From NCBI RefSeq assembly GCF_003337555.1, contig NZ_QPJK01000001.1, positions 930,001 to 994,000 on the forward strand: a stretch of 64,000 bases of DNA. Reading direction: 5' to 3'. The translations under genes were made by a program, and so were the position numbers. The DNA is from Pseudorhodoferax soli. Its GTDB lineage: Bacteria > Pseudomonadota > Gammaproteobacteria > Burkholderiales > Burkholderiaceae_C. This document shows, piece by piece, positions 4,443 through 8,699 of this stretch; the stretch's first letter is position 1, and each line of letters begins with the position of its first letter. Below the pieces are notes generated by a model that saw only the letters and a program-made list of their open reading frames with translations, was not told the DNA's origin and searched no databases.

Positions 4443-4580
4443 TTAGGGCGCCGCGCAAAGCTCAAATAGCGCTGACCGTTGGCAACGCCGCTGGGTAACA
4501 TCCTTGAGGCCTAGGCTAGCGCTGATCGGCGTGGCCTGGCGGTACGCGCGAGAACAACTCCAAGCAAGACAATCCGAACC

Positions 4581-5978
4581 ATGCTGACCCACCTACGCAT
4601 TCAGAACTTCAAGGCTTGGCGCGATACGGGACCTGTCCGTTTAGCACCGCTGACCGTGATCTTTGGCGCCAACAGTGCCGGTAAGAGCAGCCTCGGCCAT
4701 CTACTTCTGGCGCTACAGCAGACCGCACGCTCCACCGATCGCAAACGTGCGTTGCACCTAGGAGACTCCAGTTCGCTGATCGACCTGGGCACCTTTACCG
4801 ACTGCTTGTACGGTCATGATCTTTCTCAACCGTTGGGCGTGGAACTCGGCTGGCAGTTGCCAAAGGCGCTTGAAGTGCGCGACCCGCTCGTCCCGGCGTC
4901 GCGTTACCAGGGCAATGCCATGCGCCTTGATGTGGAGTTGATGGCCAACAAGAGCGGCCAACCGGAAGTTCAGGCCATGGCATATGCGCTGCAAAGTGAT
5001 GGCAGTACCGTTCTGGACGCGGCGTTGACGCGCGACAGCAACCGCAAGTTCTCGCTAAGTTCGAACAGCTTCGGGTTCAAGATGGCCGATGGCCGCAAGT
5101 GGCCGATGGATGAGCCCGAAAAATTCTATCGACTCTCTGACCTCAGCGCAGCGCGCTTCAAGAACGCTGGCTTCATGGCCGACTTGGCTTTGGCCACAGA
5201 GGCCATGCTGGACAGCCTTTCGTACCTGGGACCGTTGCGCAGCCATCCACAGCGCATCTACCAATGGTCAGGAGACACACCAGCCAGTGTGGGGGAAACA
5301 GGTGCACAAACCGTCGCTGCCATGCTCGCTGCGCAGAACGATGGGCGTCAGCTCAACCGCGGCCCACGCAAGGCCAAACAGGGCTTCGCCCCATTCATTG
5401 CAAGTTGGCTGAAGGATCTGGGCGTGATCCACGATTTCTCGGTGCATCCAGTCGCGGAGGGGCGCAAAGAGTATGAGGTGCTGATCAAGACCGGCGCGAA
5501 GTCGCCACAGGTCAAGATCACAGACGTGGGTTTTGGCGTCTCTCAGGTGCTTCCCGCGCTGGTGCAAGCGTTCTACTGCCCGCCCCACTCGACGGTGTGG
5601 ATGGAGCAGCCTGAGATCCATCTCCACCCGCAGGTGCAGGCTGAGTTGGCTGACGTATTCATTTCCGCGATCCAGGCCCGACAGGACAGCGTGGAACGCC
5701 ATGTGCAACTGATTGTCGAAAGCCACTCCGAGCACTTCTTGAATCGGCTGCAGCGCCGCGTAGCCGAGGGTGTCCTGACGCCCGACGACGTGGCGATCTA
5801 CTTCTGCCGGCGCTCGAACGCTGGTGCGGAACTGGAGCCTCTGCGCTTGAATGTCCTCGGCGACATCGAGAACTGGCCTGAGAACTTTTTTGGCGACGAG
5901 ATGGCCGACATCGCGGCACGCACGCTGGCAGCGATGAGCCGCAAACGGGCCGAGGCCGCAAGGGCCGACAGGGCATGA
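4581..5978 (+). CDS. AAA/SMC-like ATPase with DUF3696-type C-terminus, gene 1 of an ATPase-PIN-RNA ligase operon
   Basis: Predicted ABC-type AAA ATPase of 465 residues, related to the OLD-like and DUF3696 (COG4938) families common in defence loci. Visible motifs are Walker A GANSAGKSS (29-37), a signature-like VGFGVSQVLP, a Walker B-type MEQPEIHLHP (E342 and E345) and an ESHSEHF switch with His382. There is no fused TOPRIM or other nuclease domain, so catalysis on nucleic acid would come from its partner. Its stop overlaps the PIN gene start by 4 nt (ATGA). Base composition is clearly less GC-rich than argG and the MFS gene, suggesting horizontal gain. Likely a sensor or regulator of the two downstream RNA enzymes; this role is inferred. 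Confidence 0.85.
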   Translation: MLTHLRIQNFKAWRDTGPVRLAPLTVIFGANSAGKSSLGHLLLALQQTARSTDRKRALHLGDSSSLIDLGTFTDCLYGHDLSQPLGVELGWQLPKALEVRDPLVPASRYQGNAMRLDVELMANKSGQPEVQAMAYALQSDGSTVLDAALTRDSNRKFSLSSNSFGFKMADGRKWPMDEPEKFYRLSDLSAARFKNAGFMADLALATEAMLDSLSYLGPLRSHPQRIYQWSGDTPASVGETGAQTVAAMLAAQNDGRQLNRGPRKAKQGFAPFIASWLKDLGVIHDFSVHPVAEGRKEYEVLIKTGAKSPQVKITDVGFGVSQVLPALVQAFYCPPHSTVWMEQPEIHLHPQVQAELADVFISAIQARQDSVERHVQLIVESHSEHFLNRLQRRVAEGVLTPDDVAIYFCRRSNAGAELEPLRLNVLGDIENWPENFFGDEMADIAARTLAAMSRKRAEAARADRA

Positions 5979-6514
5979 AAGCGGTCATCGACACGAATGT
6001 GTTGTTGGTCGCGAATGGCGACCATGCGGACGTCTCGGCCGACTGCATCGAAGCCTGCGTCAGACGGCTGCAGGCCATGCAAGCCCGCGGCACTCCCGTT
6101 ATAGACGATGGCTTTCGCATCTTGGGCGAATACCTGCACAAAACCCGCGTCAACCCGCCCAAAGGTGTTGGCGATGTGTTCCTGAAGTGGCTTTTGCGCG
6201 AAGCCAACAACCTGAATCGAGTGCAGCAGGTCACGCTGACAGAACTCCGAGCCGATTGCTTCGCCGAGTTCCCCGACTCGGCACTGGAACCCCTATTCGA
6301 CGCTCCTGACCGCAAGTTCGCAGCCGTTGCGCATGCGCATCAAGACAGGCCACCTGTATGGCAGGCTGCCGACAGCAAATGGCTTGACTGGTGGCGGCCA
6401 CTGGCCGGCCATGGCGTGCGGGTCGAGTTTCTCTGTGCCGCGGACGCTTGCCGCTTCTACGCCGGCAAGTTCCCTGACAAGCCCCCACCGCAGTTGCCGC
6501 CGTCCGTCTTGTGA
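5975..6514 (+). CDS. PIN-domain ribonuclease-like protein, gene 2 of the operon
   Basis: Small protein of 179 residues with a PIN-type nuclease layout: VIDTNVLL at the N-terminus (Asp6), Glu52, Asp112 in DAPDRKF and Asp133 in QAADSKW. These four acidic residues are the set that binds divalent metal in PIN nucleases, so the site looks intact. PIN domains usually cut single-stranded RNA, often as VapC-type toxins, but no small antitoxin gene is next to it; the ATPase upstream and RNA ligase downstream take the neighbouring places. It overlaps both neighbours by 4 nt, which implies translational coupling and a fixed ratio. Substrate is unknown; tRNA or phage RNA are possibilities. Confidence 0.75.
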   Translation: MKAVIDTNVLLVANGDHADVSADCIEACVRRLQAMQARGTPVIDDGFRILGEYLHKTRVNPPKGVGDVFLKWLLREANNLNRVQQVTLTELRADCFAEFPDSALEPLFDAPDRKFAAVAHAHQDRPPVWQAADSKWLDWWRPLAGHGVRVEFLCAADACRFYAGKFPDKPPPQLPPSVL

Positions 6515-7218
6515 GCCGCTTCGTCCGCTTCCCCCACACCGCACATCTGGCCTGGCTGGCCAGTGGCGAGCCCCGCGACGACAAGGTGTTGTCGGCACAG
6601 GAGGCTTTGGATCTGCTGCGGCACAAGGTGGTACTGGAAGAAAAAGTGGACGGCGCCAACCTGGGTTTTTCGGTTGGCGCAGCAGGGGAATTGCGTGCGC
6701 AGAACCGTGGCCAATACTTGGCTGAACCGCACGCTGGACAGTTCAGCCGGTTGCCCAACTGGCTTGCCGTTCACGGCGCCGTCATCACCGAATCGCTGTT
6801 GGAGCATGCTGATCAGGAGCTGATGCTATTCGGCGAATGGTGTGCCGCGCGGCACTCGCTGGACTACACCCGCCTGCCGGACTGGTTCGTGCTGTTCGAC
6901 GTGCTAGAAGCCGCTACCGGCCGCTTCTGGAGCAGCACACGCCGCAACGCCCTGGCCAAACGCCTGGGGTTGGCCACTACCCCTGAGTTGACCCGTGGCC
7001 GCTTCAGCCTGAGCGACTTGAAGGCGCAACTTAGGCAGACCTCAAGCCGGTTCCGTGACGGCCCGATGGAAGGAGTCGTCGTGCGGCAGGAGTCGGACGA
7101 TTGGTGCGAACAGCGCGCCAAGCTGGTGCGTGCCGACTTCACGCAAACCATTGCCGGGCATTGGCGTAGTCGACATATCGAATGGAACCGGCTCGTCGCC
7201 ACGGCAGCAGACGGGTGA
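6511..7218 (+). CDS. RNA ligase family protein, gene 3 of the operon
   Basis: Covalent nucleotidyltransferase of 235 residues, resembling the T4 Rnl2/RNA_ligase family. Motifs are in order: motif I EEKVDGAN with the adenylated Lys45, LRAQNRG (62-67), motif III LFGEW (Glu109), motif IIIa WFVLFDV, motif IV MEGVVVR (Glu187) and motif V AKLVRADF (Lys204). It is shorter than T4 Rnl2 and seems to lack a separate C-terminal domain. Start is GTG at 6511, within the GTGA overlap with the PIN gene stop. An enzyme that seals RNA directly coupled to an enzyme that cuts RNA suggests a repair or self-protection role. It could instead use its AMP transfer to modify RNA ends. Confidence 0.83.
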   Translation: MSRFVRFPHTAHLAWLASGEPRDDKVLSAQEALDLLRHKVVLEEKVDGANLGFSVGAAGELRAQNRGQYLAEPHAGQFSRLPNWLAVHGAVITESLLEHADQELMLFGEWCAARHSLDYTRLPDWFVLFDVLEAATGRFWSSTRRNALAKRLGLATTPELTRGRFSLSDLKAQLRQTSSRFRDGPMEGVVVRQESDDWCEQRAKLVRADFTQTIAGHWRSRHIEWNRLVATAADG

Positions 7219-7265
7219 CACATTCTTCGGTTGACTCTATCAACCCTCGCCAAACAATGGAGACA

Positions 7266-8699
7266 ATGTCAACTAATAACCCCACCCCCGGCAGCCACCG
7301 GCGCGTGACACTGACCGTCGCGGCCGTGATGTTCATGCTGATGCTGGACAGCAGCATCCTGAACACCTCGCTGCCGTCCATCGCGCGCGACCTCGGCGCC
7401 CAGCCGCTGGCGCTCAGCGCCACCATCACGGCCTACCTGCTGGCCAGCGCCGTGGTGCTGCCGCTGGCCTCCTGGCTGGCCGACCGTCACGGCATGCGGC
7501 GGCTGTTCCTCGTGGCCGTGGGCGTGTTCACGCTGGCCTCGCTGCTGTGCGGACTGGCGCAGACGTCCGGCCAGCTCATCGCAGCACGGGCGCTGCAGGG
7601 CCTGGGCGGCGGGTTGCTGCTGCCGATCGGCCGCGCCATCGCGCTGCGCGGTTCGCGCACCGAAGACCGCATCGCCATCACCGCGCTGCTGACCTGGCCC
7701 GTGCTGTTCGCGCCCGTGCTGGGGCCGCCGCTGGGCGGCTTCATCACGACGTATTGGTCCTGGCACTGGAACTTCCTGCTCAACGTGCCGATCGGCCTGG
7801 CCGGCCTGTGGCTGGTGCGGCGCTGGGTGCCGGCCGACGGCACGCCCGCGCCGCGCCCGCTGGACAGGCCTGGCGCCGTGGGCGCCATCGGCGGGTTGTG
7901 CCTGTTGATCGCGGGGCTGGAGTCGGCCGCGCATGCGACCGATCCGGCGTCCTCGCGCCTGCCCGCGCTGCTGGCCATCCCGGCTGGCCTGGCGCTGTTG
8001 GCCTGGACGGCCCGCCACCTGCAGCGCGCGCCGCACCCGCTCGTGAGCCTGGCGCCGTTCGGCTGGCGCAGCTTCTCGATCGCCGCGCTGGGCGGCACGC
8101 TGGCCTCGATGAGCATCCAGGCCACGCCCTTCCTGCTGCCGCTCTTCTTCCAGCTCGGCCTGGGCCACGACGCGGTGACGGCCGGCGCCATGCTGCTGCC
8201 CTACTTCCTGGGCAACCTGGCGCTCAAGTCGGTGACCACGCCCATCCTCAAGCGCTTCGGCTTCCGGCGCGTGCTGCTGGTGGCGGGCAGCCTCAGCGTG
8301 CTGGGCATCGCCACGTTCGCAGCCGTGACGCCGCAGACCGGCTGGCCCGTTCTGGCCGCGTTGCTGGTGCTGGCCGGCTGTGCGCGCTCCATGCTGCTGA
8401 CGGCCAACTCCACGCTCATGATGATCGAGCTCCCCAGTGCGCAGATGGGCGCAGGCTCCACGCTGTCGGCCATGACCATGCAGGTCTCCGGGGCCATGGG
8501 CGTGGCGGTGGCGGCGCTGGCCCTGGCGCTGGCGGGCCAACTGCATGGGACGCACGCACAGGCCGCGGGCCAGGTGCTGCTGCAGGACTTCCAAGTCGCC
8601 TTCCTGGCCGTGGCCGCCGTCGGCGCGCTCGCGCTGTGGCACTACCGCCACGTGCCCGCGGATGTGGGCGCGGGCATGCTGGCCGGCAAGGCCGCCTGA
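7266..8699 (+). CDS. MFS transporter, DHA2 (EmrB/QacA) family
   Basis: Proton-driven multidrug exporter of the 14-helix DHA2 group in the inner membrane, 477 residues. N-terminal MLDSSILNTSLPSIARDLG, the motif A loop LADRHGMRRLF and the SWHWNFLLNVPIGL segment are typical. The ATG at 7266 (MSTNNPT) is preferred; an ATG nine bases upstream is possible and neither has ideal Shine-Dalgarno spacing. No adjacent TetR/MarR regulator or HlyD/EmrA partner gene is present, so substrates are unknown. High GC returns here after the preceding operon, marking the right edge of the atypical block. It converges on the CPBP gene with only 4 nt between stops. Confidence 0.9.
   Translation: MSTNNPTPGSHRRVTLTVAAVMFMLMLDSSILNTSLPSIARDLGAQPLALSATITAYLLASAVVLPLASWLADRHGMRRLFLVAVGVFTLASLLCGLAQTSGQLIAARALQGLGGGLLLPIGRAIALRGSRTEDRIAITALLTWPVLFAPVLGPPLGGFITTYWSWHWNFLLNVPIGLAGLWLVRRWVPADGTPAPRPLDRPGAVGAIGGLCLLIAGLESAAHATDPASSRLPALLAIPAGLALLAWTARHLQRAPHPLVSLAPFGWRSFSIAALGGTLASMSIQATPFLLPLFFQLGLGHDAVTAGAMLLPYFLGNLALKSVTTPILKRFGFRRVLLVAGSLSVLGIATFAAVTPQTGWPVLAALLVLAGCARSMLLTANSTLMMIELPSAQMGAGSTLSAMTMQVSGAMGVAVAALALALAGQLHGTHAQAAGQVLLQDFQVAFLAVAAVGALALWHYRHVPADVGAGMLAGKAA

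What the first reader, a model, noticed from the sequence alone, without database searches (positions are those of the whole stretch)
4581..7218. Three-gene ATPase, PIN nuclease and RNA ligase operon: candidate RNA cut-and-reseal defence system
Seen: three genes joined by 4-nt overlaps (ATGA at 5975-5978, GTGA at 6511-6514), with intact ATPase (Walker A 29-37), PIN (Asp6, Glu52, Asp112, Asp133) and ligase (Lys45, Glu109, Glu187, Lys204) active sites. Composition is less GC-rich than argG and the MFS gene on either side. Known: OLD/AAA ATPases act as triggers in several anti-phage systems, PIN domains cut RNA, and T4-type ligases reseal tRNA cut by host nucleases. Inferred: a host-encoded cut-and-reseal module in which the ATPase gates cleavage and the ligase protects or resets the cell. 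I know of no named system with exactly this trio.
Basis: partly seen in the sequence, partly recalled or inferred. Interest (0 to 1): 0.88.

Follow-up and report, generated by a model that had tools for sequence, protein, structure and literature searches.

The report
ATPase, RNA-cutter and RNA-ligase defence trio
Three joined bacterial genes, found together in many distant bacteria and in virus-like satellites, look like an anti-virus switch that cuts RNA and carries its own enzyme to glue RNA back together, but nobody is known to have tested this.

Summary
The trio is a clean ~2.78 kb low-GC insertion between argG and an MFS gene; two same-genus genomes have the empty site. Of the 80 best ligase relatives in GTDB genomes, 73 have all three genes, 71 adjacent in this order. 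Two P4-like satellites carry the trio between int and psu, a published hotspot of antiviral systems. Other relatives sit beside Hma-, BREX- and DISARM-type genes or on plasmids. The ATPase-PIN pair is already PADLOC candidate HEC-03, and OLD-ABC/PIN pairs are in print; the new part is the ligase as a recurrent third gene. ATPase and PIN co-evolve tightly (r 0.89), whereas the ligase is swapped between ATPase-PIN lineages (one pair: ATPase 34%, PIN 24%, ligase 85% identical), which fits a ligase acting on a shared RNA product, not on a specific partner protein. Most likely: PARIS-like gating of a PIN RNase plus a resealing enzyme. Trigger, target and sealing are inferred; no activity was tested.

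The parts
4454..7227 (.). Insertion of about 2.78 kb between argG and the MFS gene, holding only the trio
   Evidence: Same-genus G304 (L096) and G301 (L097) join window 4453/4448 to 7228/7229 with 7 and 12 nt between; lowest-GC stretch of the window; no terminal repeats stand out
4581..5978 (+). ABC ATPase of the OLD/AriA type (AAA_15, AAA_21, DUF3696; PADLOC HEC-03B)
   Evidence: Pfam AAA_15 1.5e-19, DUF3696 6.2e-9; HEC-03B 1e-126; profile hits OLD nuclease 6p74, retron PtuA and AriA
4665..4688 (+). Walker A of the ATPase (GANSAGKS, residues 29-36)
   Evidence: G29, N31, G34, K35 invariant in 44 sequences
5975..6514 (+). PIN-domain nuclease (PADLOC HEC-03A)
6511..7218 (+). Minimal ATP-dependent RNA ligase (nucleotidyltransferase domain only)
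6643..6645 (+). Codon of the ligase nucleotidyl-accepting lysine K45 (motif I, EEKVDGAN)
   Evidence: role of the lysine recalled
5975..5978 (+). ATGA overlap of ATPase stop and PIN start
   Evidence: a -4 overlap in 35 of 57 loci
6511..6514 (+). GTGA overlap of PIN stop and ligase start
   Evidence: a -4 overlap in 46 of 57 loci

Best explanation
A mobile anti-phage unit of the PARIS type, built on an ABC ATPase that gates a nuclease, with an added resealing enzyme. The ATPase binds the PIN protein and holds it inactive. A phage component, sensed by the ATPase, releases or activates the PIN, which cuts a structured host RNA (a tRNA anticodon arm or rRNA helix is most likely) and stops translation. 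The cut leaves 3'-OH and 5'-phosphate ends, which the ligase can seal without end-healing enzymes. That lets the cell tolerate leaky cutting when uninfected and recover afterwards. Shown: gene content, intact active sites, folds, conserved order, mobility, defence contexts of relatives, ATPase-PIN co-evolution and ligase exchange. Inferred: complex formation, trigger, RNA target, end chemistry and resealing.
For: Conserved unit: 73 of 80 best ligase loci hold all three genes. PIN-profile searches, not selected for the ligase, find it next to the PIN in 10 of 14 strong non-own loci of the window's phylum and 10 of 11 non-seed loci of the Corallococcus phylum. Defence context: two P4-like satellites have int-ATPase-PIN-ligase-psu, the psu-int hotspot of PMC9122126 (passages); HEC-03A/B hits; Hma-type methylase and helicase beside L166 and L167, PglXI beside L168, a DrmMI-like methylase beside L009, BrxHI beside L170. 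Mobility: empty site, foreign GC, ligase absent from 5 of 5 other genus genomes, plasmids. Gating: ATPase profile matches OLD, PtuA and AriA; AriA hexamer sequesters AriB (PMC12409363, passage). Split: Mantel r ATPase-PIN 0.893, ATPase-ligase 0.485; subtype label changes 3 on the PIN tree and 9 on the ligase tree; L041 against L044: ATPase 34%, PIN 24%, ligase 85%. Chemistry: Rnl-type ligases need 5'-P and 3'-OH.
Against: No phage or RNA experiment. The ligase is missing from 4 of 14 loci of the window's phylum and not seen in any of 6 non-seed loci of the Synechococcus phylum (one ends at the contig edge, one is degraded, one has no ATPase), so the ATPase-PIN pair can do without it. Four of 80 ligases stand alone. 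PMC6459853 says VapC products carry 5'-OH (passage), which would need healing first. The ligase lacks the extra domain of T4 Rnl2 or Naegleria ligase, so unaided strand joining is uncertain. Here the flanks are argG and an MFS gene, not a defence island. The control ORF set of the flank test also held PADLOC hits. The ligase tree is not fully free of subtype signal: 9 changes equals the lowest of 300 shuffles. No complex was modelled.
Confidence: 0.55

Rival explanations
1. The ligase is a general RNA-repair passenger. It mends host RNA cut by phage or competitor ribotoxins and travels with, but does not act on the products of, the ATPase-PIN pair.
For: Exchange of the ligase between ATPase-PIN lineages; 4 of 80 ligases stand alone, three of them beside a type I RM methylase and HsdS, a helicase-like gene, or HsdS and an integrase (read by eye); ligase-less pairs exist; one of 94 scanned flank proteins is RlaP, an RNA-repair nucleotidyltransferase family.
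Against: 73 of 80 are with both partners, 71 adjacent in one order, often with overlapping starts. A passenger meant for ribotoxin damage would be expected to bring a kinase or phosphatase; none lies inside the three-gene unit.
Confidence: 0.15
2. The ligase belongs to the attack: it adenylylates or joins the cut ends so that the damage is fixed, for example by capping 5' ends or making dead-end ligated RNAs.
For: The ligase is only a nucleotidyltransferase domain; PMC12153264 cites an Rnl3 with strong adenylation but weak ligation.
Against: The full ligase motif set is invariant; no direct support.
Confidence: 0.1
3. A toxin-antitoxin or plasmid-addiction module in which the ligase is the antidote to the PIN.
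For: VapC fold; presence on plasmids.
Against: ATPase-PIN pairs without a ligase exist; Aeromonas caviae plasmid NZ_AP022111 keeps the same ATPase and PIN accessions as its intact relative with the ligase interrupted by an IS.
Confidence: 0.1
4. A housekeeping or stress RNA-maturation pair like HARP and Rnl3, not defence.
For: HARP, another PIN nuclease, is linked to an ATP-dependent RNA ligase (PMC12153264).
Against: Patchy, mobile distribution, P4 hotspot and HEC-03 match; neither HARP nor the Rnl3 model TIGR01209 is met.
Confidence: 0.06

Closest known systems
HEC-03 (PADLOC Hma-embedded candidate; HEC-03A PIN plus HEC-03B ATPase)
   Same: Both genes match over nearly their full length: HEC-03B 1e-126, HEC-03A 1.8e-23, and 70 of 70 aligned PINs. 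The meaning of HEC is from a passage of PMC12988326, which says several HECs, HEC-06 among them, showed antiviral activity.
   Different: No PADLOC model matches the ligase at E up to 1; here the unit is not embedded in Hma. The preprint that defined the HECs is not held, so any assay of HEC-03 is unknown to me.
PARIS (AriA ABC ATPase plus AriB Toprim nuclease)
   Same: ATPase family, two-part gate and effector logic (PMC12409363, passages), and occurrence in the P4 int-psu hotspot (that PARIS was found in this hotspot is recalled, PMC9122126 was seen in passages only).
   Different: PIN instead of the Toprim/DUF4435 effector, plus an RNA ligase.
OLD-ABC plus PIN auxiliary modules in BREX loci (PMC12839542, passages)
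   Same: ATPase-PIN pairing.
   Different: The whole word 'ligase' occurs 0 times in its main text; supplements were not seen.
HARP protein-only RNase P with Rnl3 RNA ligase (PMC12153264, parts 1-2 of 3 read)
   Same: A PIN nuclease linked with an ATP-dependent RNA ligase.
   Different: Different PIN and ligase families, no ATPase named, typically bidirectional gene orientation and hosts of extreme environments.
Pnkp1-Rnl-Hen1 bacterial RNA repair and T4 Pnkp-Rnl1 (PMC4411300, passages)
   Same: RNA repair against ribotoxin cuts.
   Different: Those heal 2',3'-cyclic phosphate and 5'-OH ends first; no kinase or phosphatase is in this unit, and the nuclease is encoded in the same operon.

Membership tests
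HEC-03 | HEC-03A and HEC-03B homologues side by side | tested here: met
HEC-03 | Embedded in an Hma locus (from the name) | tested here: not met
   Window flanks are argG and an MFS gene; some relatives do lie by Hma-type genes
PARIS | AriA-like ATPase (AAA_15/AAA_21) | tested here: met
   AriA PADLOC model 1.1e-21; AriA chains 2.3e-4 with the profile
PARIS | DUF4435 Toprim nuclease AriB | tested here: not met
   The partner is a PIN fold; no DUF4435 hit in any of the three proteins
PIN superfamily (VapC-like fold) | PIN fold with conserved acidic residues | tested here: met
VapBC toxin-antitoxin | Adjacent VapB-type antitoxin | tested here: not met
   Neighbours are the ATPase and the ligase
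Rnl2/Rnl5-type RNA ligase | Nucleotidyltransferase motifs I, III, IIIa, IV, V | tested here: met
   (motif names recalled)
Rnl2/Rnl5-type RNA ligase | Additional C-terminal (Rnl2) or N-terminal (Rnl5) domain | tested here: not met
   235 aa; the alignments to T4 Rnl2 2hvr (0-231 of 319) and Naegleria 6vt9 (139-338) leave out the rest of those chains
HARP-Rnl3 pair | HARP PIN family and TIGR01209 ligase above cut-off | tested here: not met
   No HARP hit; TIGR01209 24.2 bits against a cut-off of 136.9
Anti-phage defence system | Protects against phage in an assay | not testable with these tools
   Only genomic context is available here

The most novel reading that the evidence does not exclude
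Immunity by selective repair: the PIN cuts host and phage RNA alike, and the nick-sealing ligase rescues base-paired host tRNA or rRNA, whose broken halves stay together, while unstructured phage mRNA stays cut. Defence would then be survivable instead of suicidal, and the exchangeable ligase would set what counts as self.
Probability: 0.15. Interest if true: 0.93.

Novelty: new variant of a known kind. Interest (0 to 1): 0.74.

Why it matters
Abortive nuclease defences are thought of as one-way. A widespread system that encodes both the cut and its own sealer would make reversible immunity directly testable, and would give one reason why bacteria hold RNA ligases without end-healing partners. 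It also adds an overlooked recurrent third gene to an existing candidate family, HEC-03, and offers a convenient experimental model: the P4-satellite versions.

Tried and rejected
Housekeeping locus: rejected, since two same-genus genomes have the empty site and 0 of 5 other genus genomes have the ligase. Transposon with terminal repeats: none stood out. Phage-borne ligase capture: of 41 viral-contig hits, 38 are only 25-35% identical; L196 is 62% identical but starts at the contig end; only L197 (39%) and L198 (37%) have ATPase and PIN. Unrelated middle gene in a second subtype: wrong, it is also HEC-03A PIN.

E. coli homologue of the satellite versions: none by megablast for L197, only short ATPase pieces in 3 of 5426 genomes for L198. 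Sequence searches of the PDB for the PIN gave nothing meaningful. Rfam at gathering scores and a tRNA scan of the window gave 0 matches.

Defence-flank test: 94 of 151 flank ORFs (16 loci) and 113 of 168 control ORFs (15 stretches) were scanned, limited by residues. The listings show only the first 25 of 79 and of 45 families, so this is a tendency, not a statistic; the control also held PADLOC hits (GajB/UvrD, CARF/RtcR, Csx1, mad3 and others). Individual scans: 6 of 9 large flank proteins hit methylase or helicase defence models at 1e-40, and 3 did not.

Limits: PIN profile A2 was built mostly from ligase-linked loci, so the prevalence counts lean towards such clades. The phylum of the window's genome is not told; Pseudomonadota is my inference from its nearest named relatives. 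The subtype labels were set by ATPase identity to the window (under 40%), so the ATPase figures between and within subtypes, and the single change on the ATPase tree, are partly so by construction; the PIN and ligase rows and the Mantel test are not. Trees were quick searches with a simple model. Dropped rows: two weak G442 loci without ATPase; the window's own locus; the seed loci L176 and L191; 8 of 73 full loci by length before the Mantel test. L055 scored as subtype 2 by identity but groups with subtype 1 and was counted both ways. The literature library is partial: Payne 2024 preprint, Krishnan 2020 and Burroughs 2016 are not held, so prior mention of the ligase there is possible. That no paper naming the trio was found rests on the searches.

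Full report
Observation. The three ORFs, both 4-nt overlaps and all the named catalytic residues are present as stated. Pfam gives AAA_15/AAA_21/DUF3696 for gene 1, nothing above cut-off for gene 2 and RNA_ligase PF09414 for gene 3. PADLOC gives HEC-03B (1e-126) for gene 1, HEC-03A (1.8e-23) for gene 2 and nothing for gene 3. The search of its own genome finds no other PF09414 ligase.

Mobile insertion. In two same-genus genomes argG is directly followed by the MFS gene, with window 4453/4448 joined to 7228/7229. The inserted ~2.78 kb holds only the trio, has 61.3% GC in a 69.2% window, and third-position GC of 72-75% against 94% in argG and a metG-like gene. None of 5 other genomes of the genus holds the ligase.

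Conserved unit. The ligase search of GTDB genomes gave 358 relatives; the best 80 were kept. By profile, 73 of 80 have ATPase, PIN and ligase, 71 of them adjacent and in this order; 2 have PIN and ligase at a contig edge, 1 has ATPase and ligase, 4 have the ligase alone. Record titles among the 80 include Pseudomonadota, Myxococcota, Acidobacteria, Cyanobacteria, Verrucomicrobia and Spirochaetes, and a Rhodococcus plasmid carries the trio. Searching instead with the PIN: in 300 genomes of the window's order, 6 others hit with the single PIN sequence and 4 of the 6 have the ligase. With the PIN profile, 16 of 398 genomes of the window's phylum hit; of 14 strong non-own loci all have the ATPase and 10 have the ligase next door. 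In the phylum of a Corallococcus genome 12 of 195 genomes hit and 10 of 11 non-seed loci have the ligase. In the phylum of a Synechococcus genome 7 of 244 hit and none of the 6 non-seed loci shows the ligase; one ends at the contig edge, one is degraded and one has no ATPase. On plasmids 9 of 12 records with the PIN have the ligase, one of the nine interrupted; 3 Acinetobacter soli records have none, and the one of these that I opened has an HNH endonuclease in that place.

Defence context. Two IMG/VR contigs carry int-ATPase-PIN-ligase-psu, with a phage-type primase gene in one. This is the psu-int hotspot of P4-like satellites that PMC9122126 describes as a likely reservoir of antiviral systems (passages). 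Relatives sit by Hma-type methylase and helicase (L166, L167), PglXI (L168), a DrmMI-like methylase (L009) and BrxHI (L170), by AbiEii and a GASH-type system on Aeromonas plasmids, and inside a helicase and N-6 methylase locus on an Acinetobacter plasmid. The first 25 families listed for the control ORF set include no Brx, Drm or Hma helicase but do include other PADLOC hits, and both listings are truncated. The window's own copy is not in a defence island.

How it may work. The most informative result is evolutionary. Across 65 full loci plus the window, ATPase and PIN distances correlate at r 0.893, while ATPase-ligase is 0.485 and PIN-ligase 0.466. Two lineages, split by ATPase identity, share 34% ATPase identity between them against 49-54% within, and 27% against 38-47% for the PIN; for the ligase the figures are 53% between and 53-55% within. 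On trees the lineage label changes once (ATPase, partly by construction), three times (PIN) and nine times (ligase), with shuffled means of 12.9-13.0 and, for the ligase, a shuffled range of 9-14. Azonexus L041 and Zoogloea L044 have ATPases 34%, PINs 24% and ligases 85% identical; L060 and L061 give 35, 32 and 75%. I infer that ATPase and PIN are a matched physical pair, as AriA and AriB are (PMC12409363, passage), whereas the ligase works on a common product, most simply the RNA that these PINs cut. ATP-dependent Rnl-type ligases require 5'-phosphate and 3'-OH ends (PMC7824862, passage). From recalled knowledge PIN nucleases leave such ends, which would explain why no kinase or phosphatase is in the unit; PMC6459853 (passage) states that VapC products carry 5'-OH, which counts against this. 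Because ligase-less pairs persist and one Aeromonas caviae plasmid has an IS in the ligase with the ATPase and PIN accessions unchanged, the ATPase probably holds the PIN in check and the ligase modulates the outcome.

What is known. HEC-03 is an existing PADLOC candidate, and OLD-ABC paired with PIN nucleases is reported in BREX loci, without mention of a ligase in the main text (PMC12839542, passages). A PIN nuclease linked to an RNA ligase is reported for HARP and Rnl3 (PMC12153264, parts 1-2 of 3). I found no paper naming the trio, but the preprint that defined HEC systems is not held. So this is a new variant of a known kind: a PARIS-like ATPase-gated nuclease module with a recurrent, exchangeable RNA ligase. 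Defence role about 0.85, PIN cutting RNA about 0.9, ligase resealing PIN products about 0.6 (my estimates).

Noticed in passing
L131 (Aeromonas caviae plasmid NZ_AP022111.1), about 6532-8606: An IS256-type element interrupts the ligase gene while the ATPase and PIN stay intact: a natural ligase-less state.
   Followed up: partly
L195 (Acidithiobacillus caldus plasmid p1), 7001-7159: A remnant of the ligase C-terminus lies between an N-6 methylase and an HNH endonuclease, in a locus type where Acinetobacter soli has ATPase-PIN: the module seems to come and go in one slot.
   Followed up: partly
L036, L066, L093: Solo copies of this ligase lie beside HsdM/HsdS, a large helicase-like gene, or HsdS plus an integrase (read by eye), so the ligase may also serve other defence systems.
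   Followed up: partly
L189, L190, L193: HEC-03 pairs of the Synechococcus phylum lack the ligase; L190 and L193 are followed by restriction- or helicase-like genes (read by eye).
   Followed up: no
One of the 94 scanned flank proteins (alignment A5; member not mapped): A match to RlaP, an RNA-repair nucleotidyltransferase family, in the flank of a relative.
   Followed up: no
L063, 4072-5426: About 1.4 kb separates ATPase and PIN; its content was not examined.
   Followed up: no
G697:C1:581734-582486: A second, more distant ligase copy in the Nannocystis genome that also has the trio (L068).
   Followed up: no
L070: A contig titled Klebsiella pneumoniae MAG carries a fragmentary ATPase plus this ligase; the organism label looks doubtful.
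   Followed up: no
Klebsiella phage Kp4845-1 and relatives (hits H63-H72): Half-length matches (34%) to the ATPase in 12 phage records, the listed ones without annotation; the neighbour genes were not read.
   Followed up: no
L098 and L099: In two other same-genus genomes the sequence next to argG matches the window only from about 8681 on, so the MFS gene is missing there too: a variable site.
   Followed up: no
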